This document shows positions 26,452 through 39,657 of a stretch of 64,000 bases of DNA, in pieces (within the stretch, counting starts at the first letter, position 1; the number at the start of each line of letters is the position of its first letter). The stretch spans positions 2,520,322 through 2,584,321 of the forward strand of contig NC_011138.3 of assembly GCF_000020585.3 (NCBI RefSeq), written 5' to 3'. The notes under the pieces were generated by a model. The model had not been told where the DNA came from. It searched no databases and saw only the letters and a list, made by a program, of their open reading frames with translations. Origin of the DNA: Alteromonas mediterranea DE. Lineage in GTDB: Bacteria; Pseudomonadota; Gammaproteobacteria; Enterobacterales; Alteromonadaceae. The translations under genes were made by a program, and so were the position numbers.

Positions 26452-28899
26452 CTAAATCGGCGAACCTGGCGGCAGCGGTTCTACTTCAAAGGTACTTGGC
26501 CATGTTTTGCTGGCCCAATAAGTATCAAACTGCTGTTTCAGTATTTCATACTGATTGTCGTCAGCCTTATCGTCTAGCCATTCGCTAAATTCAAGTAAAG
26601 CAAGTTCAGCTTCCATTCTTACTTCGGGCGCCAACTTATCGCTAGTTACCGCTTTCATCACTGCATTTAACGCTACTAGCTGTAAGCGTTTTGCTAATGG
26701 GCTTTGCGACTTATTTTTATACCAGTGTACGCTAAGTATCTGCTTCACAAGCATGGAAACACCTACTTTTTTGCGTCGGTCTTTAGTGCTTCTTGTTTGC
26801 CACTCTAAACGGTTTAAGCGTTCTGGGTGTAATAACAACTCAAAAGCAAAGTTGGATGCCGAAGCAGCGGCAGAAACAGGGTCCAACATTAAGCCCATTT
26901 TGCCCTTAAAATGCTCGCGAGTAATGTCGTCACCGTAGGCTGTAGGTGGAATAAGCGTGAGTACCGATTCAGGTATAGTGAGATAGTCTGCGGTAGTAGC
27001 GGTCAGTAACTGTTGCATTGCACGTTGCTGCACCGCGGGTGCTACAAACTGCTGGCCCTGCGCCTGGGTATAGTCGCCTTTGCGCTCGTACTCATAAACT
27101 AAACCGCCTACTTGCTTTGCTACGGCTTCTAACTGGTAACGGTGAAGTAAGTAAATAGGCACTAAAGCATTTTCAAGGGACGACAAACTGCTGCTTGGGC
27201 TTAAGGTGTCCAAACCTAAGTTGGCTAATGCCTGTTCGCGCACTTGTGAAATTTCATCGAAAGCATCTAGTGGGTTGCTGCCATTTTCCCACATATGGCC
27301 GTTTGCTGATGCATGTCGGCTGCTGCGGGTATCTGGGTCTGACTTAAAGCTTAAACCTTCGTTGCGACCTTTTACGATAATCTTTGCCAAGGCTTCGGCT
27401 TCTTCTACGTCGCTGGTAAAGTCTTGATAACCATATGCTACGGCGTGTATATCCCATGCGCCTATACCTTTGTCATAAGCGCTTTCCAGGCTTATTTTGC
27501 CATTTTTAATGCTAATTTTGGGGTGGGGATAATCCATCACAGACGCACGGTTGTTTTCACTTGCTGCAAAATTATGTGCTATGCCTAACGTATGCCCTAC
27601 TTCATGAGCAGACAACTGCCTAATACGATCTAGCGCCATTTCTTGCTGCACAGTGGTGTCGGTATTACCCTCTTTAAACGGGCTGGTTAGGCCAAGGGCG
27701 ATTAAATAGTCTTGTCTTACACGCAGCGAACCTAAAGTAACGTGACCTTTGATAATTTCGCCCGTACGTGGGTCGACAACCGACGAACCATAAGACCAGC
27801 CGCGGGTTGCGCGATGTACCCAGTTAATCACGTTGTAGCGCACGTCCATAGGGTCGGCACCTTCAGGCAGTACTTTGACCTGAAACGCATCTTTATAGCC
27901 TGCGGCTTCATAGGCTTGGTTCCACCAGCTTGCGCCTTCTTTAAGCGCGGTCATTACCGGCTCTGGAATACCTGGGTCAAGATAATACACAATAGGCTCA
28001 ACTGCTTCGCTCTTCGCCGCATGAGGTGTTTTCTTGTGTAAACGGTGGCGGGTAATAAAACGCTGTTCAGTAGGCTCGTTGATAGGTGTTGAGTAATCGA
28101 AATAACTGAACTTCCAGTAGCCTGAGTATGGGTGATACTCTCTGGGTGTGTAGTTATCGTCTGGCAGTGCCACAAACGAGTGATGCAAGTGAACCGTCAC
28201 ACTTTCTGGATCGGGCGTAACTTGCTGCACGTATTCGCCCGGCTTTTTACCAGCAAAAGTGACTAAAGCCTCTAATTCAGTATTCTTTTCGAAGCCTTTG
28301 GTTTTAGGTAAGTATACGCCACTGCGCATTTTATCTACGCTGAAACTACCTTGGTTGGTGCGCGCCATACGGTTGCCAATGCCGTGAATATCACTTAACA
28401 AGAAAGGCGTATAATCAATAAGGCTGGCGCTGTCGTTTTTAGCCACCAGCGTAAAGCCAGCTATGACCGAGTCTGCAAAAGCCTCATCAATACTCTGCTT
28501 TTCAGCGTCGCTGCCGTGGGCCGCGCGGTATTTGGTGTTGTGCTGCTTTAATAAAACCTTATTGCCAAATTTTTCAAAGCTGACTAAGCGCGTATCACCC
28601 AACTGCCCGCGATCAAGGCCTATATCGTTTGAACCTACGCCATAAGGCAAACTGCTTTGGAACAAATATTCGGCATCGCTTGTAGGCACGGCCAAGTAAA
28701 CTTTGTCGCTTTCATCGTCATAGTAAACGGGGATTAAACCATCTTTTTTGGTCATATCGCTGGTGAATTCACCAATGCTTGGTAACGCTGCCCAAGCTGA
28801 AGACGTAGACACGACAAACAATAGCGTAATCGCAATGGCAAATTTGCCAGAAGCTTTTACTTGTCGCGCCGCTTTATGAAAAATGTTCAATTGCAGCAT
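26452..28899 (-). CDS. Secreted zinc-dependent metalloprotease (DUF5117/DUF4953 type)
   Basis: 815 residues. A signal peptide is seen near residues 14-38 (KFAIAITLLFVVSTSSAWAA). The catalytic motif HEVGHTLGIAHNF, near residue 430, is the extended HExxHxxGxxH of metzincin-like peptidases, followed by SVMDYPHPK, a possible Met-turn. The domain order (N-terminal beta-rich part, then peptidase, then helical C-terminus) matches the DUF5117/DUF5118/DUF4953 family of marine bacteria. It should act in the periplasm or outside the cell; substrates are unknown. An AAGGACT site precedes the ATG. The membrane protein downstream may work with it. Confidence 0.88.
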   Translation of the reverse strand: MLQLNIFHKAARQVKASGKFAIAITLLFVVSTSSAWAALPSIGEFTSDMTKKDGLIPVYYDDESDKVYLAVPTSDAEYLFQSSLPYGVGSNDIGLDRGQLGDTRLVSFEKFGNKVLLKQHNTKYRAAHGSDAEKQSIDEAFADSVIAGFTLVAKNDSASLIDYTPFLLSDIHGIGNRMARTNQGSFSVDKMRSGVYLPKTKGFEKNTELEALVTFAGKKPGEYVQQVTPDPESVTVHLHHSFVALPDDNYTPREYHPYSGYWKFSYFDYSTPINEPTEQRFITRHRLHKKTPHAAKSEAVEPIVYYLDPGIPEPVMTALKEGASWWNQAYEAAGYKDAFQVKVLPEGADPMDVRYNVINWVHRATRGWSYGSSVVDPRTGEIIKGHVTLGSLRVRQDYLIALGLTSPFKEGNTDTTVQQEMALDRIRQLSAHEVGHTLGIAHNFAASENNRASVMDYPHPKISIKNGKISLESAYDKGIGAWDIHAVAYGYQDFTSDVEEAEALAKIIVKGRNEGLSFKSDPDTRSSRHASANGHMWENGSNPLDAFDEISQVREQALANLGLDTLSPSSSLSSLENALVPIYLLHRYQLEAVAKQVGGLVYEYERKGDYTQAQGQQFVAPAVQQRAMQQLLTATTADYLTIPESVLTLIPPTAYGDDITREHFKGKMGLMLDPVSAAASASNFAFELLLHPERLNRLEWQTRSTKDRRKKVGVSMLVKQILSVHWYKNKSQSPLAKRLQLVALNAVMKAVTSDKLAPEVRMEAELALLEFSEWLDDKADDNQYEILKQQFDTYWASKTWPSTFEVEPLPPGSPI

Positions 28900-31848: not shown

Positions 31849-33030
31849 TTAAGCAAGTACTGCTTTTAATGCTTTAACGCAAGCATCTGTTTCTGCGGGC
31901 GTGCCTACGCTGATGCGCGACCATGAGTCATAACCGGGCCATGTGCGCCCTACAACCTTTATGCCTTGGGCTTTCATTTTTTCCGCGAATTTATCGTGCG
32001 GCATGCCCGTATCCATGTAAATGAAATTACCTTGAGGGTTCGGCGCATAAGGCTGCTTCAATTCTTTAGCTACGTTTACTAATTTGTCACGCTCGGTTTT
32101 AATCCGTGAACGCATGGTATTTAGGTTTGCATGGTCGTCCATACTTGCCATACCTGCCACGAGTGCCAAGTAGTTCACACCGCCCATTCGCAACATACCG
32201 CCCATGGTTTTAGCTTGCTCAGACGGCATTATGGCATAACCTAAGCGCTGGCCTGCCATGGCGTGAATTTTCGAAAACGTACGGCAAATTACCACGTTGT
32301 GCCCCTCTGCGACTAGCTTCGATTGCACATTAGCCGGGTAAGCATCAGACATTTCAATGTAGGCTTCATCAATAAATACCTGTGCTTTTTTCGACACGCG
32401 TTTTGCAAAAGCGGTAAGTTTGGCTGCATCTACCACGCTACCCGTCGGGTTGTTCGGGTTGCACACGTAAACCGCAGTGGTATCTTCAGTTACCGCTGCT
32501 TCAATTGCATCTAAATCGAAAGTCATATCGGCAGCAAGGGGTACGTAAGTAACATCGGCGCCCATAAATTCAGCGCCTCGCGGTACACCTTCGTAAGTGG
32601 CCATAGACGTTACCAGCTTATTACCGTTTTTCGTGATCCAGTCGGCATAACCAAATAATATAGGTGAAGAACCGTTCGTGATAACGATTTGATCGGCAGA
32701 GACACCCTCTTGTTTGGCAATTTTCTGCGCTAACACTTCAACCGTAGCATCGGTATAGCGAGCAAGATTCAAAAGCTCACTTTGCATGGCTTTTGCCGCT
32801 TTTTTAGACGGGCCAAACGCATTTTCATTCGACGATAAACGAACAAGACCGTCATTTACATTAGGGGTTGCAGATGGAAAGTGTTCGGTTGGCATACCGG
32901 CCGCTCGTAGGTCGCCCATAATACTGTCGACACTCGTCGTTAGCGCTACCGCACCTGCTCCTAAGCCCACTGATTTTAACCAATTACGACGTGAAGAATT
33001 CACCGAGGTTTGTTGTACGTTTTTATTCAT
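31849..33030 (-). CDS. Tat-exported HisC-like PLP aminotransferase
   Basis: 393 residues. The N-terminus has a twin-arginine signal, SRRNWLKSVG at residues 13-22, then a hydrophobic GLGAGAVALTTSV segment. The remainder is a histidinol-phosphate-aminotransferase-like fold-type I enzyme: RLSSNENAFGPSKKA, YVCNPNNPTGSVVD, FIDEAYIEM and the PLP lysine in RTFSKIHAMAGQRLGYA. Export through Tat would let the enzyme fold and take up PLP before transport. The substrate in the periplasm is not known. It lies alone. Not a duplicate of cytoplasmic hisC, as no his genes are near. Confidence 0.87.
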   Translation of the reverse strand: MNKNVQQTSVNSSRRNWLKSVGLGAGAVALTTSVDSIMGDLRAAGMPTEHFPSATPNVNDGLVRLSSNENAFGPSKKAAKAMQSELLNLARYTDATVEVLAQKIAKQEGVSADQIVITNGSSPILFGYADWITKNGNKLVTSMATYEGVPRGAEFMGADVTYVPLAADMTFDLDAIEAAVTEDTTAVYVCNPNNPTGSVVDAAKLTAFAKRVSKKAQVFIDEAYIEMSDAYPANVQSKLVAEGHNVVICRTFSKIHAMAGQRLGYAIMPSEQAKTMGGMLRMGGVNYLALVAGMASMDDHANLNTMRSRIKTERDKLVNVAKELKQPYAPNPQGNFIYMDTGMPHDKFAEKMKAQGIKVVGRTWPGYDSWSRISVGTPAETDACVKALKAVLA

Positions 33031-33292
33031 ATTTCGCTCTGCCTTCCATCTAGATTCTCTTTAGACTAAAGGCTTAATTTTGGGTGCGCAATAGCGGAAA
33101 ACACCTAACCCATTGAGCCAAATGCACTTTTTGCGTGCATGAAACGCACTAAAATTGACAACATAAGAAGTTTTAACGTGTTAAGCCGGTACATAACGGT
33201 GCAGTGTTCTCGGAACCAGTTTACTGTTTGCGATGAATGACATTTTTTACAGTCCCAGCTGCCGCCTCAAGCTACTCTCATTTGGTGGTATC

Positions 33293-33311
33293 TCCAATAC
33301 TCAGTATTGGA
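33293..33311. promoter_or_regulatory. 19-base palindrome upstream of the Rho_N-type gene
   Basis: TCCAATAC (33293-33300), centre TCA, GTATTGGA (33304-33311): perfect 8-base arms. It lies about 90 bases before the gene at 33402 and 260 bases from the divergent aminotransferase. Shape and size fit a repressor operator; the factor is unknown. The remainder of 33031-33401 shows no gene. Confidence 0.5.
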
Positions 33312-33401
33312 TAACTAAACGTAAACCATCTGCTCAAATACCGAGTAAGAATCACTACAACACATGATTTATTCACTTACTTTGTACAACAGGAGTTAAA
33401 C

Positions 33402-33665
33402 ATGGCTAAGGATCACGGTAATCAAATTAAGAACGATGACACGTATGAGGCACTTCGTGACGAGGGCTACAGTAAAGAAAAGTCTGCACGTATCGCTAAT
33501 GCACAGGCAAATAGTCAGCAAACGCCGTCTAAAGATGGTGGTAAAGCCAATAAATACGAAGAACGCACCAAAGATGAGCTGTATCAAAAAGCCAAAGAAG
33601 TAGGTATCGAAGGTCGCTCTACGATGAGCAAAGACGAGTTAATCGATGCACTGCGCAATCATTGA
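33402..33665 (+). CDS. Small Rho_N/DUF7218-type protein
   Basis: 87 residues, strongly polar, no membrane segment. The N-terminal half (DDTYEALRDEGYSKEKSARIANA) resembles the short DUF7218-like family. The C-terminal half (KDELYQKAKEVGIEGRSTMSKDELIDALRNH) is a Rho-termination-factor N-terminal (SAP-like) helical motif that can bind nucleic acid. An AGGAG site sits seven bases before the ATG. Similar small proteins are often stress-induced, but that is not shown here. A palindrome upstream may control it. Confidence 0.8.
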   Translation: MAKDHGNQIKNDDTYEALRDEGYSKEKSARIANAQANSQQTPSKDGGKANKYEERTKDELYQKAKEVGIEGRSTMSKDELIDALRNH

Positions 33666-33808
33666 TGCGCTTAGCACAACATTTCCAGCGAAGGCCGCAC
33701 GCAGGAATTATAGCTTCCTGATAGCTTAGCGAAGAACAACCTCTGCCTGGTGCATTATTGTTTAAATTGCTGAGCTTAGGGAAATGCCCCATCGCTTCAA
33801 CAAACTCA

Positions 33809-33821
33809 TGAAATTCGTTCA
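33809..33821 (+). promoter_or_regulatory. MetR box 1 upstream of mesX
   Basis: TGAAATTCGTTCA is a perfect match to the MetR consensus TGAA-N5-TTCA, including a T at the centre. MetR is the LysR-type activator of metE that senses homocysteine. The site is 116 bases before mesX. Confidence 0.7.
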
Positions 33822-33829
33822 TGCAAAAA

Positions 33830-33842
33830 TGAAATTAAGTCA
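33830..33842 (+). promoter_or_regulatory. MetR box 2 (imperfect) upstream of mesX
   Basis: TGAAATTAAGTCA matches seven of the eight defined MetR positions. Its centre is 21 bases from box 1, two helical turns, which suits a LysR-type tetramer binding recognition and activation sites. Confidence 0.5.
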
Positions 33843-33936
33843 TTTTTATTCATAAATAAAACAGCGTATAACGTACTCATTGCTTTTACAGCATTGACGA
33901 TACTCAGTTTAACTTTAGGAATAGAAGCGCATTCTC

Positions 33937-34926
33937 ATGAACAAAAACGTGAACACTGAATTTTCATTTACCATTAACAGCGTTAAGTTTAATGAAGATT
34001 ATCGCCCTTCAGATAACACGCGTATTACCACTAACTTTGCAAACCTAGCCCGCGGAGAGCGCCGTAAGGAGAACCTACGGGACGCCCTAAGCATGATTAA
34101 TAATCGCTTCAATGCATTAGCTAGCTGGGATAATTTAAGTGGCGATCGGTATTCTGTTGAACTGGAAATTATATCTGTAGATATTGATGTAGAAGGTAAT
34201 GGCAACACCTTTCCTACTATCGAAATATTGCAAACCAACATTATTGACACCGAGACCGGCAAGCGCACACAAGGTATTGTCGGTAACAACTTTTCTTCCT
34301 ATGTTCGTGACTATGACTTCAGCGTACGCCTGTCTAATCACAACCGCGGCCAGTCTTCGTTCAGTGTGCCTAACGATTTCGGCGACCTACACGGTAAGCT
34401 ATTTAAATACTTCGTGAATTCTGACGCGTATAAAGCACACTTTTCTAAGCTGCCAGTTATTTGCTTAAGCGTTTCAGACAACAAAACCTACCGTAGAACC
34501 GAAAACCAGCACCCTGTATTGGGGTTTGAATATCAGCCTAATGAGTCGTCGCTAACGGAACAGTACTTTAAAAAAATGGGCTTAAATGTGCGTTACTTTA
34601 TGCCGCCTAACAGTGCAGCTCCTTTTGCATTTTATTTCTTTGGTGACTTGTTAAACGATTACACCAACTTAGAGCTTATTAGCACTATCGCGACGATGGA
34701 AACGTTTCAGAAAATCTATCGCCCTGAGATTTACAACGCGAATGCGCAAGCAGGCCTTTACTATAAGCCTAACTTAAAAAACAGCGATCACTCGCTAACA
34801 CGCATCGTCTACGACCGCGAAGAACGTTCTCATTTAGCTGTAGAACAGGGTAAATTTGTTGAAGAGAACTTTTTAAAGCCCTATCAGCACAAGCTGGAGC
34901 AATTTACGGCAAGTTACGCCAGATAA
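33937..34926 (+). CDS. mesX: MesX (DUF1852), partner of methionine synthase MesD
   Basis: 329 residues of the DUF1852 family. From published work on folate-independent methionine synthases, MesX is required with MesD in aerobic bacteria and is thought to take part in an oxygen-dependent step. Recognisable family stretches are FTINSVKFNEDYRPSDNTR, TTNFANLARGERRKENLR and YFMPPNSAAPFAFYFFGDL. No signal peptide, so cytoplasmic. MesD follows after a 139-base spacer. A two-site MetR-type operator lies upstream. The family assignment is from memory of conserved sequence and of the gene pair. Confidence 0.85.
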   Translation: MNKNVNTEFSFTINSVKFNEDYRPSDNTRITTNFANLARGERRKENLRDALSMINNRFNALASWDNLSGDRYSVELEIISVDIDVEGNGNTFPTIEILQTNIIDTETGKRTQGIVGNNFSSYVRDYDFSVRLSNHNRGQSSFSVPNDFGDLHGKLFKYFVNSDAYKAHFSKLPVICLSVSDNKTYRRTENQHPVLGFEYQPNESSLTEQYFKKMGLNVRYFMPPNSAAPFAFYFFGDLLNDYTNLELISTIATMETFQKIYRPEIYNANAQAGLYYKPNLKNSDHSLTRIVYDREERSHLAVEQGKFVEENFLKPYQHKLEQFTASYAR

Positions 34927-34940
34927 ATTCTCTGACAATG

Positions 34941-35022
34941 GCAATTCGCAACTTACGAATTGCAATGTTCAACGCGTTCAGTTTGAACCATCAAATTTTG
35001 ATGGGGCGGCACGGTTCGCCCC
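34941..35022 (+). other. Cluster of four hairpins between mesX and mesD
   Basis: Successive inverted repeats: GCAATTCG/CGAATTGC (34941-34963), GTTCAA/TTGAAC (34968-34988), CCATCAA/TTGATGG (34988-35004) and GGGGCG/CGCCCC (35003-35022). None has a following T run. They fill most of the 139-base spacer and may stabilise or process the message, or attenuate mesD. Confidence 0.6.
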
Positions 35023-35065
35023 AGATGCACTAATACAAATTGTCGACTAAAAGAAAATAAATCAC

Positions 35066-36106
35066 ATGAAAAAGCTACTACCAACATCTATATCAGGCAG
35101 TCTTCCAAAGCCTTCATGGCTCGCACAGCCCGAGACCCTATGGTCGCCGTGGAAATTAGAAGGTGAAGCACTTGAAGAAGGCAAAAAAGACGCCTTACGC
35201 GTTACGCTACAAGAGCAAACTACGTCGGGCATTGATATTGTTTGTGACGGTGAGCAAACCCGTCAACACTTTGTGACCACCTTTATAGAGCATCTTGACG
35301 GTGTTGATTTTGAGAGCCGAAAAACGGTAAGAATTAGAAACCGCTATGATGCTAGCGTACCGGTTGTAACACAAGCGGTCACACGGCCAAAATCGGTGTT
35401 TGTAGAACATGCTAAGTTTCTTAGAAGCCAAACCGACCAGCCAATTAAGTGGGCGCTACCTGGCCCTATGACTATGGTTGATACCTTGTATGACAACCAC
35501 TACAAAAGCCGCGAAAAGCTCGCGTGGGAATTTGCCAAAATTCTAAACCAAGAGGCGAAAGAGCTAGAGGCTGTGGGTGTAAATATAATCCAGTTCGACG
35601 AACCTTCGTTTAACGTGTTTTTCGACGAAGTAAATGAATGGGGTATAGCCGCCCTTGAGCGCGCCATTGAAGGGCTAAAATGTGAAACCGCAGTTCATAT
35701 TTGCTATGGATATGGCATTAAGGCCAATACAGATTGGAAAAAGACGCTGGGCGCTGAGTGGCGTCAATACGAAGAAAGCTTCCCAAAACTTGCAAAGTCG
35801 AATATCGATATGGTGTCGTTAGAATGCCATAACTCCCACGTGCCTATTGAGCTTATTTCATTGCTCAAGGGCAAAAAGGTGATGGTTGGCGCTATTGATG
35901 TAGCCACCAACACAATAGAAACGCCAGAAGAAGTCGCCGCTACATTACGTGAAGCCCTTAAATACGTGGATGCCGATAAGCTTTACCCTTGTACTAACTG
36001 CGGTATGGCGCCACTGCCCCGTTCTGTCGCAAGAGGTAAGCTTGAAGCGCTTAGCGCTGGTGCTGAAATAGTAAGGCAAGAATTAGCGCAAAAGCTAAGT
36101 GCCTAA
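35066..36106 (+). CDS. mesD: Folate-independent methionine synthase MesD
   Basis: 346 residues of the MetE C-terminal-domain superfamily, without the MetE N-terminal half. Zinc and homocysteine ligands by analogy with MetE are His211 and Cys213 (VHICYGYG), Glu253 (SLECHNSH) and Cys312 (TNCGMAPLPR). The N-terminus LPTSISGSLPKPSWLA is typical. MesD methylates homocysteine without a folate methyl donor and needs MesX, encoded just upstream. The pair order matches the known mesX-mesD locus of Acinetobacter-type bacteria. A hairpin with weak T run follows at 36195. A generic MetE-like annotation would miss the partner relationship. Confidence 0.87.
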   Translation: MKKLLPTSISGSLPKPSWLAQPETLWSPWKLEGEALEEGKKDALRVTLQEQTTSGIDIVCDGEQTRQHFVTTFIEHLDGVDFESRKTVRIRNRYDASVPVVTQAVTRPKSVFVEHAKFLRSQTDQPIKWALPGPMTMVDTLYDNHYKSREKLAWEFAKILNQEAKELEAVGVNIIQFDEPSFNVFFDEVNEWGIAALERAIEGLKCETAVHICYGYGIKANTDWKKTLGAEWRQYEESFPKLAKSNIDMVSLECHNSHVPIELISLLKGKKVMVGAIDVATNTIETPEEVAATLREALKYVDADKLYPCTNCGMAPLPRSVARGKLEALSAGAEIVRQELAQKLSA

Positions 36107-36194
36107 TCTAATAGACGATAAATAGACGATAAATATGCCTAACACGCGTCTTGCTTAAGCTGCTTGCTGAGGCTCATTTATTATTTACGCAACT

Positions 36195-36213
36195 TGCCCA
36201 CTTTACGTGGGCA
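36195..36213 (+). terminator. Probable terminator after mesD
   Basis: TGCCCAC (36195-36201), loop TTTAC, GTGGGCA (36207-36213), followed by TTTATTTA. The stem is good and the T run imperfect. Confidence 0.6.
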
Positions 36214-36816
36214 TTTATTTAGTTGTGACGCACAGCAGAATAAAGGTTTAAAAAATACACTAATTCTATTTTTCTTTATTTAATTTAGAGCGAAAATACA
36301 GCACCTCCCAACCGCAAAAACAAAATATTTTTAACAAACCGGTTAACAATTTAAAGCAAAGAGGTGAATGAACAAATAATTAAGTTAAACTGCGAAACAA
36401 ATTACATGGTGCTTTATTATTAAGCTACTTGTACTAATGCTTTCTAAAAACATTGCAAAAACCCATTGACGATACTTTCTCAAAATGAATCAACCCTGCA
36501 TAAAATAAGCGCAATAGAGATACAAATTGACCGCCTGGTCAACATTAAAACAATGCTCGTATAGTTTTAAAACAACGCCAAGAAATATAACTAAAAACTA
36601 CTATTTATAAATACTTTAACAGTACGTTAAAAGGTAAGGCTTACTTCTTTTATTCATCGCAAAAAATTGATTTGGGCTAATTCAGCTCACTAAAATGCGC
36701 GCCCACCTAAACATAAGTAAAAAATTTACGTAATGCATTTTGGACAGCCCTTGCCTAAAAAAGGGGGGCATTTACCAAACAACAAGCATGTAAATAAAAT
36801 TCACTAGGAACAAACC
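36214..36816 (+). other. Long AT-rich leader region before a TonB-dependent receptor
   Basis: About 600 bases with no supportable gene. It contains a palindromic operator-like site at 36527-36542 and must hold the receptor promoter. No riboswitch motif is recognised. Confidence 0.4.
36527..36542. promoter_or_regulatory. TetR-type operator candidate
   Basis: TTGACC (36527-36532), GCCT, GGTCAA (36537-36542). The GACC-N4-GGTC core is the same as in the NemR box and similar TetR-family operators. It lies about 275 bases upstream of the receptor start. No TetR-family gene is in the window. Confidence 0.4.
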
Positions 36817-39657
36817 ATGAAAAAAGTAGCAACTGCTGTTCAGTTAGCGCTGGCAGGAAGCGTGGCATTAACGTCTGCTAACGTTATCGCTCAAGACGCT
36901 GCGACAGAAAGCGCCGATGTTGAAAAAATTCAAGTTACCGGTTCACGTATTTCTCGTCAGGGCGCAATTGCACCTTCACCAGTAACCGCAATTTCTGGCG
37001 AGTCACTGCTCAACTCAGGCGCGATGAACATTGGTGAGGTTCTAAACGAACTGCCGTCATTAGCAAATACGTTCTCGCTAGGTAACTCAGGGCAATTCAT
37101 TGGTACTGCAGGTCTAAACATCCTGGATCTTCGCGGCATGGGTACAGACCGCACACTTGTATTGGTTGACGGTAAGCGTCATGTGTCTTCATCAGCAGGC
37201 ACAGCTGCCGTTGATACGAATACCATTCCAACTACATGGATTGAGCGTGTAGAAATCGTAACTGGCGGCGCATCTGCTGTATACGGTGCCGACGCGGTGA
37301 CCGGTGTGGTTAACTTCATTCTTAAAAAGAATATTGAAGGGTTCGACATTAGCGCAACGCAAGGTTTCGCGCAGGAAAACGGCTACAAAAACGATAAGTA
37401 CCAAGCGTCTTACGGTTTTAACTTTGACAACGACCGCGGTAACATCGCCTTCGCAGCTGAATATAGCTCACAAGAATCGCTAGATGCCTTAGACAACCCG
37501 TGGACTGCTACGGCGTACCGCAACATGAGCTTCGAAAGCATCATGGGTTATGAGCGCGAGGAAGACCAGCTTAATTCAACGGCGTTCCCTGACAACTTCT
37601 ACACGCCTAATGCAGGTTACTACGTACTAAATAACGCAGGTGTATTTGGCGGCGGAACAAAAACCTTTAACGCTGACGGCTCAATTAAAGACATCTATAT
37701 TGGCGATCAGGTAGATGGCGTTTTCTGCGCTAACTGTGACCTTTTCAACCTTCGTCAGTTCACGCAGTTACAGCCTGAGTTTGATCGTACTAACCTAAAC
37801 GTTAAAGGTAACTACGAACTTAACGACGATACTACGGTTTACGCACAGGCAAAATACGCCCGCACGCGCGCTATCTCAATGGCGCAGCCAGCGTTTTTCT
37901 TCTATAGCGATGAAACAACTATAACACGCAACAACGCATTTTTAGACGACAGCGTTGCTGAGTACATGGACGCAAACGGCCTTGAAAGCATCGAGCTAAA
38001 CCGCATGATGACCGACCTAGGTCGCCGAACTGAAGCTGATGAACGCGAAACTTATCGCTACGTTTTAGGTGTAGAAGGTTACATCAATGATGAGTGGAAC
38101 TACGAGGCGTTCGTAAACTACGGTAAAACTGAGCTAGAGCGTGAGAACCGCAACAACCTTATTCTTCAGAACTTCTATAATGCAATAGACGCTATTGAAG
38201 ATGACAATGGCAACATTGTTTGTGCATCAGGCAGCGAAGATGGCTGTGTGCCGCTTAACATCATGGGTTACGGACAGCCTTCACAAGACGCTATTGACTA
38301 TGTGAATACCACCTCTGTGGGTACAAGCAAAATCGAGCAATACAATGCGGGCGCAACGATTGCTAACTCTGGTATTTACGAGTTGCCAGCGGGCTACGTA
38401 GGTTTTGCCGCAGGTGTAGAATACCGCAAAGAAAAAAGCGCAATTGAAGAGCCAGACAACGCAGCAGGTACGTTTTTCAATGCACTAGGCGAAGACAAGG
38501 GTGAGTACGATGTCTCTGAAGTATTTACCGAAGTAACGGTTCCGCTTCTTGAAGGCTTACCGGGCGTGGATATGCTAACCTTCGACACCGCTGCCCGTAT
38601 TGCTAATTACTCATCTATTGGCAACGCGAAAAGCTGGAAACTTGGTCTAGATTGGCAAGTTTTCGAAGACTTGCGTGTTAGAGCGACTAAGTCATCGGCC
38701 CTTCGTGCACCGAACATCAGCGAACTTTACGGTGAAGCAAGCCAAACGTTCTTTAGCGTCAGCGACCCTTGTCGTACAGACGAGCTAGAAGACCTTGCTA
38801 ATGCCGACCAGCGCATTGCAAACTGCGCAGCGTTAGGCGTTCCTGCAGATTTTAATTCTGACTATGACTCGGCAACGCTGGAAGGCGTAAACGGCGGTAA
38901 CATCGACCTTCAGGCAGAACAGTCTATCTCTAAAACCCTAGGTTTGGTTTACACACCTGCTTGGTTTGAAGGCTTCACTGCAACAGTCGACTACTGGGAA
39001 ATTGAACTTACCGACGCTATTACCAATATTGACGGTCAAACGATCCTTGATCGCTGCGTAGACTCTGAAACGGGCATCAATAACCCTTACTGCGGTCTTA
39101 TCGACCGTGATTCAGAAACCGGCGAAATTACGCAAATTCGCAGCTACGCATTGAACATTGCGGGTCAAGAAGCGAAAGGTGTCGATTTCGAGCTAGGCTA
39201 CGACTTCGATGCACTTGAAGGTGCATTCCGTACAAGCCTAATTGCAACTTACCTTAAAGACCGTAAAGAATTCCCATTCCAGGACAACCCAGAGCTATTT
39301 TATCAAAACGCCGGCACTGCTGGTGAGTCTGACTGGCAAGGTGTCTTCACGGTTAACTACAGCCGTGGCGATTGGGAAGCAAGCTGGAAAACGCGCTACA
39401 TTGAGCGCGCGAGCCTTTACGACAACCAAGAGCTAGCACGTAACCCTAACCCAAGTAACCGTATGGAGCTTGCATCATACGCAGTAACCGATGTAACTGC
39501 GGGTTACAACTTTAAAAATGGTGTAAGCCTAACCGTGGGTATTGATAACCTGTTTAACCGTGCGCTACCTAAAGGTACAACGGGTACGGGTGAAATCGAC
39601 GGCGCATACGACAACATTGGCCGCTTTGGCTATGTAACCGTAGCATACAAAATGTAA
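36817..39657 (+). CDS. TonB-dependent receptor
   Basis: 946 residues. Signal peptide (ending near VIAQ), then a TonB-box-like segment VEKIQVTGSRI. The plug domain has SPVTAISGESLLNSG, LDLRGMGTDRTLVLVDGKRH and ERVEIVTGGASAVYGADAVTG. The barrel ends with VTVAYKM. The VTGSRI plus VYGADAVTGVVNFIL style is typical of Alteromonadales receptors for carbohydrate, peptide or other large organic nutrients rather than iron. The substrate is not identified and no degradative enzymes are adjacent. AGGA precedes the ATG by eight bases. A strong terminator follows. Confidence 0.92.
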   Translation: MKKVATAVQLALAGSVALTSANVIAQDAATESADVEKIQVTGSRISRQGAIAPSPVTAISGESLLNSGAMNIGEVLNELPSLANTFSLGNSGQFIGTAGLNILDLRGMGTDRTLVLVDGKRHVSSSAGTAAVDTNTIPTTWIERVEIVTGGASAVYGADAVTGVVNFILKKNIEGFDISATQGFAQENGYKNDKYQASYGFNFDNDRGNIAFAAEYSSQESLDALDNPWTATAYRNMSFESIMGYEREEDQLNSTAFPDNFYTPNAGYYVLNNAGVFGGGTKTFNADGSIKDIYIGDQVDGVFCANCDLFNLRQFTQLQPEFDRTNLNVKGNYELNDDTTVYAQAKYARTRAISMAQPAFFFYSDETTITRNNAFLDDSVAEYMDANGLESIELNRMMTDLGRRTEADERETYRYVLGVEGYINDEWNYEAFVNYGKTELERENRNNLILQNFYNAIDAIEDDNGNIVCASGSEDGCVPLNIMGYGQPSQDAIDYVNTTSVGTSKIEQYNAGATIANSGIYELPAGYVGFAAGVEYRKEKSAIEEPDNAAGTFFNALGEDKGEYDVSEVFTEVTVPLLEGLPGVDMLTFDTAARIANYSSIGNAKSWKLGLDWQVFEDLRVRATKSSALRAPNISELYGEASQTFFSVSDPCRTDELEDLANADQRIANCAALGVPADFNSDYDSATLEGVNGGNIDLQAEQSISKTLGLVYTPAWFEGFTATVDYWEIELTDAITNIDGQTILDRCVDSETGINNPYCGLIDRDSETGEITQIRSYALNIAGQEAKGVDFELGYDFDALEGAFRTSLIATYLKDRKEFPFQDNPELFYQNAGTAGESDWQGVFTVNYSRGDWEASWKTRYIERASLYDNQELARNPNPSNRMELASYAVTDVTAGYNFKNGVSLTVGIDNLFNRALPKGTTGTGEIDGAYDNIGRFGYVTVAYKM

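What the first reader, a model, noticed from the sequence alone, without database searches (positions are those of the whole stretch)
33809..36106. mesX-mesD locus behind a two-site MetR-type operator
The gene pair fits the folate-independent methionine synthase MesD and its partner MesX. A perfect MetR box and a near-perfect one, 21 bases apart, precede mesX, the geometry expected for a LysR activator. Seen in sequence: boxes, zinc ligands, gene order. Inferred: homocysteine-responsive control by MetR. Control of mesXD by MetR is not something I know to be described.
Basis: partly seen in the sequence, partly recalled or inferred. Interest (0 to 1): 0.7.

Follow-up and report, generated by a model that had tools for sequence, protein, structure and literature searches.

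The report
MetR-type switch for B12-free methionine synthesis
A marine Alteromonas-type bacterium carries the vitamin-B12-independent methionine-making gene pair mesX-mesD behind a conserved double binding site for a MetR-like regulator; the regulatory link was already predicted in 2014, so the locus is largely expected, though its operator has more parts than first seen.

Summary
mesX (33937-34926) and mesD (35066-36106) are clear family members with MetE's zinc residues. A perfect 15-bp MetR box (33808-33822) and a one-mismatch box 21 bases on precede mesX. One perfect box alone is within chance; the layout is not. Among the 80 closest mesX loci kept plus the window, 69 of 81 upstream regions have a box with at most one mismatch, against 3.15 in shuffles, and TATAA lies 58-61 bases from the box start in 69 of 84 loci. 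The genome has a MetR-like gene near metH, no metE and no CbiC. With only this MetR type, box pitch is 21 in 35 of 35 scored loci; with only the classical type it is 22 in 40 of 50. The pairing is not significant on supported tree branches. My searches found no experimental test.

The parts
33808..33822 (+). MetR box 1, ATGAAATTCGTTCAT, perfect match to ATGAA-N5-TTCAT; proposed recognition site (RBS)
   Evidence: conserved in relatives
33829..33843 (+). MetR box 2, ATGAAATTAAGTCAT, one mismatch; starts 21 bp after box 1; distal part of the proposed activation site (ABS)
33844..33853 (+).
33867..33872 (+). -10-like TATAAC, 59 bp after the start of box 1; spacing fixed in relatives. Not picked up by the sigma-70 consensus scan, as expected of a weak, activator-dependent promoter but no proof of one
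   Evidence: against:
33937..34926 (+). mesX (DUF1852, PF08908), 329 aa, putative oxygenase partner of MesD
   Evidence: ORF, 578 bits against cut-off 25
35003..35022 (+). Hairpin GGGGCGGCACGGTTCGCCCC in the mesX-mesD gap; role unknown
35066..36106 (+). mesD, folate-independent methionine synthase, 346 aa
   Evidence: NF006589, 682 bits against cut-off 392, 3RPD 640 bits; residues
36195..36213 (+). Terminator-like stem-loop after mesD
   Evidence: 5 such sites found in the region, 3.8 expected, so weak

Best explanation
mesX-mesD is an operon-like pair whose promoter is activated by the genome's MetR-like LysR regulator (G000:C1:1220245-1221129, minus strand). One dimer is proposed to hold the perfect palindrome, centred about 64 bases before the likely start of transcription, and a second dimer the proximal element ATGAA-N5-GTCAT-TTTTATTCAT that reaches the -35 region; a -10-like TATAAC lies at a fixed distance. 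Homocysteine, which should build up when B12-dependent MetH is idle, is the expected co-activator. MesX, which is thought to need oxygen, then helps to supply a methyl group to MesD, which makes methionine without folate or B12 (Price et al.'s prediction for the methyl transfer). Shown here: genes, sites, spacing, conservation, presence of the MetR-like gene and metH, absence of metE and of one corrin-ring marker gene. Inferred: DNA binding, homocysteine response, activation, start site, and the roles of the sites. The three half-sites of the proximal region, ten bases apart, would allow two registers for the second dimer; that is inference from recalled knowledge of LysR regulators.
For: Families. 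MetR-like gene: best genome hit to E. coli MetR, 183 bits against 64 for the next; recognition-helix motif TQSALSH identical to E. coli. Operator conservation; present in 10 of 10 Alteromonas or same-genus loci (L003-L006, L019, L050, L071, L130, L139, L147). Box-to-TATAA distance 58-61 in 69 of 84 loci. Only exact paired box in 4.48 Mb; 9 of 12 perfect single boxes lie inside ORFs. No metE, metH present, no CbiC. mesX lies in the fetched flanks of 17 of 50 loci of this MetR type. The one genome without any MetR hit (G371) also lacks a box with at most one mismatch. Prior prediction in other Proteobacteria. MesD needs MesX and oxygen, not MetF (PMC7857596 section 12).
Against: No binding or expression data exist here for this organism. 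The MetR-like protein scores 193 bits, below NCBIfam's MetR equivalog cut-off of 382. In one search, 8 of the 17 mesX genes near this MetR type show no box with at most one mismatch (L159, L160, L180 have two-mismatch boxes as L041, L027, L080; L171, L189, L190, L191, L197 none). Of 33 loci without the box-TATA cassette, 13 have no box with at most one mismatch, most of them in genomes that do have a MetR-like gene. This genome's metR has no such box before it, although 31 of 50 of its type do. The sigma-70 scan does not list the proposed promoter. MetR hits occur in 123 of 124 genome entries, but no base rate was measured in genomes without mesX.
Confidence: 0.8

Rival explanations
1. Only box 1 is a MetR palindrome. 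The 'second box' is the left part of a longer activation element, ATGAA-N15-TTCAT, and its palindromic look in this lineage is secondary.
For: In the other common operator type box 2 is not a palindrome, yet a TGAA and a later TTCAT-like half-site keep about the same distance. In 40 loci of the window's type the columns of TTTTATTCAT are 95-100% conserved, against 65-98% for the right half of box 2.
Against: In the same 40 loci the C and A of the right half of box 2 are 98% and 92% conserved, so that half may be read as well.
Confidence: 0.45
2. Another LysR-type regulator, not the MetR-like one, uses the site, or the site is a relic.
For: The genome has 20 hits to MetR at E up to 0.001; LysR boxes of several families look alike (recalled).
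Against: The second-best hit is far weaker (64 against 183 bits). The operator spacing goes with MetR type. The site is present in 10 of 10 Alteromonas or same-genus mesX loci.
Confidence: 0.1
3. mesX-mesD is controlled by MetJ or a riboswitch instead.
For: The metA-like/metH stretch in this genome has tandem MetJ-like boxes; B12 strongly lowers mesX in Acinetobacter baumannii (PMC12892962, passages), whose family lacks MetR according to PMC4239095.
Against: No MetJ pair with up to 4 of 16 mismatches in 33640-35066; no Rfam match at E up to 1 in 33000-36900.
Confidence: 0.04

Closest known systems
Predicted MetR regulon member 'PF08908-metE2' (Leyn et al. 2014, PMC4239095)
   Same: Same gene pair, same 15-bp motif ATGAA-N5-TTCAT, same proposed homocysteine logic (section 7 read, passages elsewhere).
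   Different: In what I read there is no second site, third half-site, -10 spacing or MetR-lineage pairing; figures and supplementary tables were not available to me.
MetR control of metE in E. coli K-12
   Same: Two MetR-like elements 21 bases apart lie before metE (L002 2316-2330 and 2337-2351); the same geometry.
   Different: There the target is metE, divergent from metR. In this genome metE is absent and metR lies elsewhere, about 1 kb past metH. In E. coli the right half of the second element is poor.
MesD/MesX of Sphingomonas koreensis and Acinetobacter baylyi (Price et al. 2021, PMC7857596)
   Same: Same two families, adjacent; zinc and substrate residues conserved (sections 10-13 read).
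   Different: A find in that paper for MetR, MetJ and binding site returned only the word 'metrics': its main text does not treat MetR control. A flavin reductase gene, often near mesX-mesD there, was not found among the eight neighbouring ORFs searched here.

Membership tests
MesD | Sequence in the MesD family | tested here: met
   NF006589 682 bits against cut-off 392; 3RPD, called a MesD structure in PMC7857596, 640 bits
MesD | Zinc ligands H, C, E, C and substrate residues S, E, D | tested here: met
   H211 C213 E253 C312 and S12 E63 D178 aligned to MetE
MesD | Adjacent mesX (DUF1852) | tested here: met
MesD | Methionine synthesis that needs MesX and oxygen but not MetF | not testable with these tools
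   Shown for S. koreensis genes in E. coli
MesX | PF08908 match | tested here: met
   578 bits against cut-off 25
MetR (NCBIfam equivalog NF011950) | Score above the curated cut-off | tested here: not met
   193 bits, cut-off 382, though it is the best model (next 119 bits). The protein is therefore called MetR-like.
MetR-like regulators | Groups with MetR proteins in a tree | tested here: inconclusive
   48-row clade with SH-aLRT 100 among 99 MetR-like rows, but only one outgroup row, a quick tree and warnings of long branches
MetR-like regulators | Recognition helix motif | tested here: met
   TQSALSH here and in E. coli; TQSALSH or SQSALSH in 96 of 99 MetR-like rows
MetR regulon | Conserved ATGAA-N5-TTCAT upstream of the target | tested here: met
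MetR regulon | Homocysteine-dependent activation | not testable with these tools
   no expression data for this organism

The most novel reading that the evidence does not exclude
This genome's regulator belongs to a distinct MetR-like lineage that has made mesX-mesD its main target in place of metE, and the lineage and the operator spacing have co-evolved (box pitch 21 with this lineage, 22 with most of the classical one), with repeated switches between bacterial groups.
Probability: 0.35. Interest if true: 0.5.

Novelty: new member of a known kind. Interest (0 to 1): 0.32.

Why it matters
MesX-MesD makes methionine without B12 or methyl-folate, and its methyl source is unknown (PMC7857596 section 13). 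A defined, conserved operator gives a handle on when cells use it; the expected signal is homocysteine that builds up when B12-dependent MetH is idle. Among the mesX genomes examined, those with only the MetR type seen here show no metE (0 of 42), and five others keep only broken metE pieces beside metR, so one methionine synthase may be replacing another under the same regulator.

Tried and rejected
Single-box significance: rejected, since perfect boxes are at chance level in window and genome. Riboswitch: none found. MetJ control of mesX: no box pair found; one lies before the metA-like gene. Statistical test of co-evolution: association 85 of 91 scored loci, but on supported branches only 2 pairs (MesX tree, median p 0.5) or 3 pairs (MesX+MesD tree, median p 0.25); on all branches of the MesX+MesD tree, without a support filter, 6 of 7 greedy pairs agree and one does not differ in spacing. 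Plasmid search with the mesX-mesD gap: no match. Paper searches that gave only listings and led nowhere; PMC13059711 passages treat MesD and nitrous oxide, not regulation.

Rows dropped or lost: the region meant for G411's MetR ended before the gene through my error (L170). The neighbourhood count covers 96 of 102 loci: L170 had no MetR and five (L204, L208, L225, L230, L243) failed my ORF rule. L201 (short) and L250 (split MetR) were left out of the MetR tree. Eight long or distant MesX rows were left out of the MesX+MesD tree; MesD was not used for L129, L146, L152 (under 60%; the last two are among those eight) nor found for L016 and L024. In the spacing table 32 of 124 loci had no scored operator under my rule and one more had no MetR class. 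The 124 entries are not all different genomes: L011 and L124 are identical in mesX, metR position and contig length. MetR class was set by percent identity and entered by hand, as was metE presence (broken pieces counted as absent, G419's copy with one stop as present); regions were fetched for 100 MetR hits. Four Colwellia genomes with weak MetR hits (29-36%) were put in the classical class.

Full report
What is there. The window lies in a single-contig genome of 4.48 Mb whose nearest named relatives by MesX are Alteromonas sp. IB21 (99%), A. marina (95%) and A. abrolhosensis (94%). mesX (33937-34926) scores 578 bits on PF08908; mesD (35066-36106) scores 682 bits on NF006589 (cut-off 392) and is closest among solved structures to 3RPD, which PMC7857596 calls a MesD protein (section 11 read). 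MetE residues H641, C643, E665, C726 and S433, E484, D599 align with H211, C213, E253, C312 and S12, E63, D178 of MesD. MesX has no convincing solved relative: two hits, E 0.26 and 0.28.

The operator. Box 1 is ATGAAATTCGTTCAT (33808-33822), box 2 ATGAAATTAAGTCAT (33829-33843), followed directly by TTTTATTCAT (33844-33853) and, 59 bases after the start of box 1, TATAAC (33867-33872). Alone, a perfect box means little: 2 in the window against 1.38 expected and 12 in the genome against 14 for a reversed control, 9 of the 12 inside ORFs of at least 100 codons. The pair box-N6-ATGAA has one exact match in the genome, this one; the next independent match has one mismatch and lies inside an ORF, and at two mismatches counts are near the control. 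Conservation is the real evidence. In 80 mesX loci of named genomes (the closest of 591, from a capped list) plus the window, the best upstream box has 0, 1, 2 or 3 mismatches in 16, 53, 11 and 1 regions; dinucleotide shuffles give 3.15 regions with at most one mismatch, maximum 5 in 20 rounds. In 80 regions with an anchor box, a second match with at most two mismatches lies most often at offset 21 (25 regions), then 31 (12). In 84 loci with a box of at most one mismatch and room downstream, TATAA starts 58, 59, 60 or 61 bases after the box start in 4, 28, 30 and 7 loci; the next most frequent offset has 2. The sigma-70 consensus scan does not list this promoter.

Two main operator types. All 124 mesX regions (80 named, 43 from a phylum-wide draw of 398 genomes of which 44 had mesX, and the window) were scored for a box with TATA at 55-64 bases: 40 at 59, 38 at 60, 8 at 61, 4 at 58, 1 at 56, 6 with a three-mismatch box only, 27 with none. 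The 59 type, to which the window and 10 of 10 Alteromonas or same-genus loci belong, reads ATGAA-N5-TTCAT, six bases, ATGAAATaAaaTCAtTTTTATTCAT, 12 bases, GTATAA; the ten columns of TTTTATTCAT are 95-100% conserved in its 40 loci. The 60 type, in Vibrio, Shewanella, Pseudoalteromonas and Colwellia among others, has the second TGAA one base further away and no clean second palindrome. Of the 33 loci without the cassette, 13 have no box with at most one mismatch; one of these, G371, is the only entry with no MetR hit, but most of the others do have one. E. coli metE shows two elements at pitch 21, so the geometry is that of classical MetR control.

The regulator. The genome's best hit to E. coli MetR is G000:C1:1220251-1221129 (36%, 183 bits; next 64 bits). 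It lies about 1 kb past metH, on the opposite strand, 17 bases behind another LysR gene. Its best NCBIfam model is MetR, 193 bits, below the cut-off of 382, so I call it MetR-like. Its recognition helix TQSALSH equals E. coli's. In a quick tree of 99 MetR-like proteins and one outgroup row it falls in a 48-row clade with SH-aLRT 100, apart from the E. coli and Vibrio proteins; the tool warned of long branches. A box with at most one mismatch lies in the 320 bases before 31 of 50 metR genes of this type, but not before this genome's metR. MetR hits at E up to 1e-20 occur in 50 of 50 and 73 of 74 mesX genomes; genomes without mesX were not examined for it.

Regulator type and target. Of 50 counted loci of this type (at least 49% identity), mesX lies in the fetched flanks of 17, metE of 2 (L161, L166) and metH of 5; of 46 other MetR loci, mesX of 2 and metE of 23. 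All genomes here were chosen for having mesX. Among the 124 entries, 0 of 42 with only this type have metE, 43 of 59 with only the classical type, 3 of 6 with both, 4 of 12 with the third type (40-44% identity) alone, 0 of 2 with third and own, 1 of 3 without a class. metE pieces with stops lie beside metR in G411 (below the cut-off), G431, G456, G463 and G465, and a short metE-like piece beside metR in L177.

Regulator type and spacing. With only this type, the second TGAA lies at offset 22 (box pitch 21) in 35 of 35 scored loci (7 unscored). With only the classical type it lies at 23, 21, 22 in 40, 7 and 3 loci (9 unscored). With both: 1 at 22, 2 at 23, 3 unscored. Third type alone: 1 at 22, 11 unscored. 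Third and own: 2 at 22. No class: 1 at 22, 2 unscored. Counting presence of this type against offset 22, 85 of 91 agree and 6 do not. On the MesX tree the type changes at least 12 times and the offset at least 11; on the MesX+MesD tree 8 and 9. The neighbouring pair Colwellia L068/L081 differs in both. But on supported branches only 2 or 3 independent pairs remain, too few for significance. Against the pairing: P. luteoviolacea L016 and L024 have this MetR type but offset 23, though they also carry a classical MetR; and of the 17 mesX genes near this MetR type, 8 show no box with at most one mismatch (three of these have two-mismatch boxes; three further ones were cut off in the fetched stretch, but their named loci L022, L073 and L081 have boxes).

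Physiology. The genome has metH (in two ORFs), no metE and no CbiC, so by this one marker it makes no corrin ring and MetH would need external B12. The stretch before the metA-like ORF (named by me from its sequence) and metH carries tandem MetJ-like boxes and no MetR box with up to two mismatches; mesX has no MetJ pair and no known riboswitch. In Vibrio campbellii metE, metF and metR rise without B12 (PMC11837498, passages); in Acinetobacter baumannii B12 lowers a mesX gene strongly (PMC12892962, passages). In Shewanella oneidensis MetR-type sites TGAANNNNNTTCA were tested by gel shift, without mention of mesD or DUF1852 (PMC13393422, passages). These fit homocysteine build-up as the signal but do not prove it here.

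What is known. MesD needs MesX and oxygen, not MetF (PMC7857596 sections 10-13 read). Leyn et al. [quoted passage not shown] Searches for DUF1852 with methionine, MesD with MesX, PF08908, core methionine synthase with MetR and MetR with metE2 showed no experimental test of MetR on mesX-mesD in the held library; the supplements of Leyn et al. were not readable. The operator anatomy and the lineage pairing were not seen in what I read. I rate this a new member of a known kind with an open, testable extension.

Noticed in passing
34927-35065: The mesX-mesD gap is 139 nt here against a median of 29.5 in 122 loci. It holds a hairpin whose stem differs at paired positions in A. marina and A. abrolhosensis (compensatory by eye), and the stretch folds better than shuffles (z -3.3).
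   Followed up: partly
L108:5542-9243: metH is split into two ORFs (355 and 874 aa), matching MetH model positions 4-352 and 358-1230.
   Followed up: no
L016, L024, L171, L197: In Pseudoalteromonas luteoviolacea loci L016 and L024 no mesD was found beside mesX; a second mesX with mesD stands near a MetR-like gene of the window's type in L171 (genome of L024) and L197 (genome of L061).
   Followed up: partly
genomes G411, G431, G456, G463, G465: Pieces of metE with stops lie beside metR in genomes that keep mesX, suggesting repeated loss of metE.
   Followed up: partly
33402-33665: Small gene before the operator encodes an 87-aa protein with DUF7218 and Rho_N domains.
   Followed up: no
26452-28899: Large protein with Met-zincin (DUF4953) and DUF5117 domains, minus strand.
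   Followed up: no
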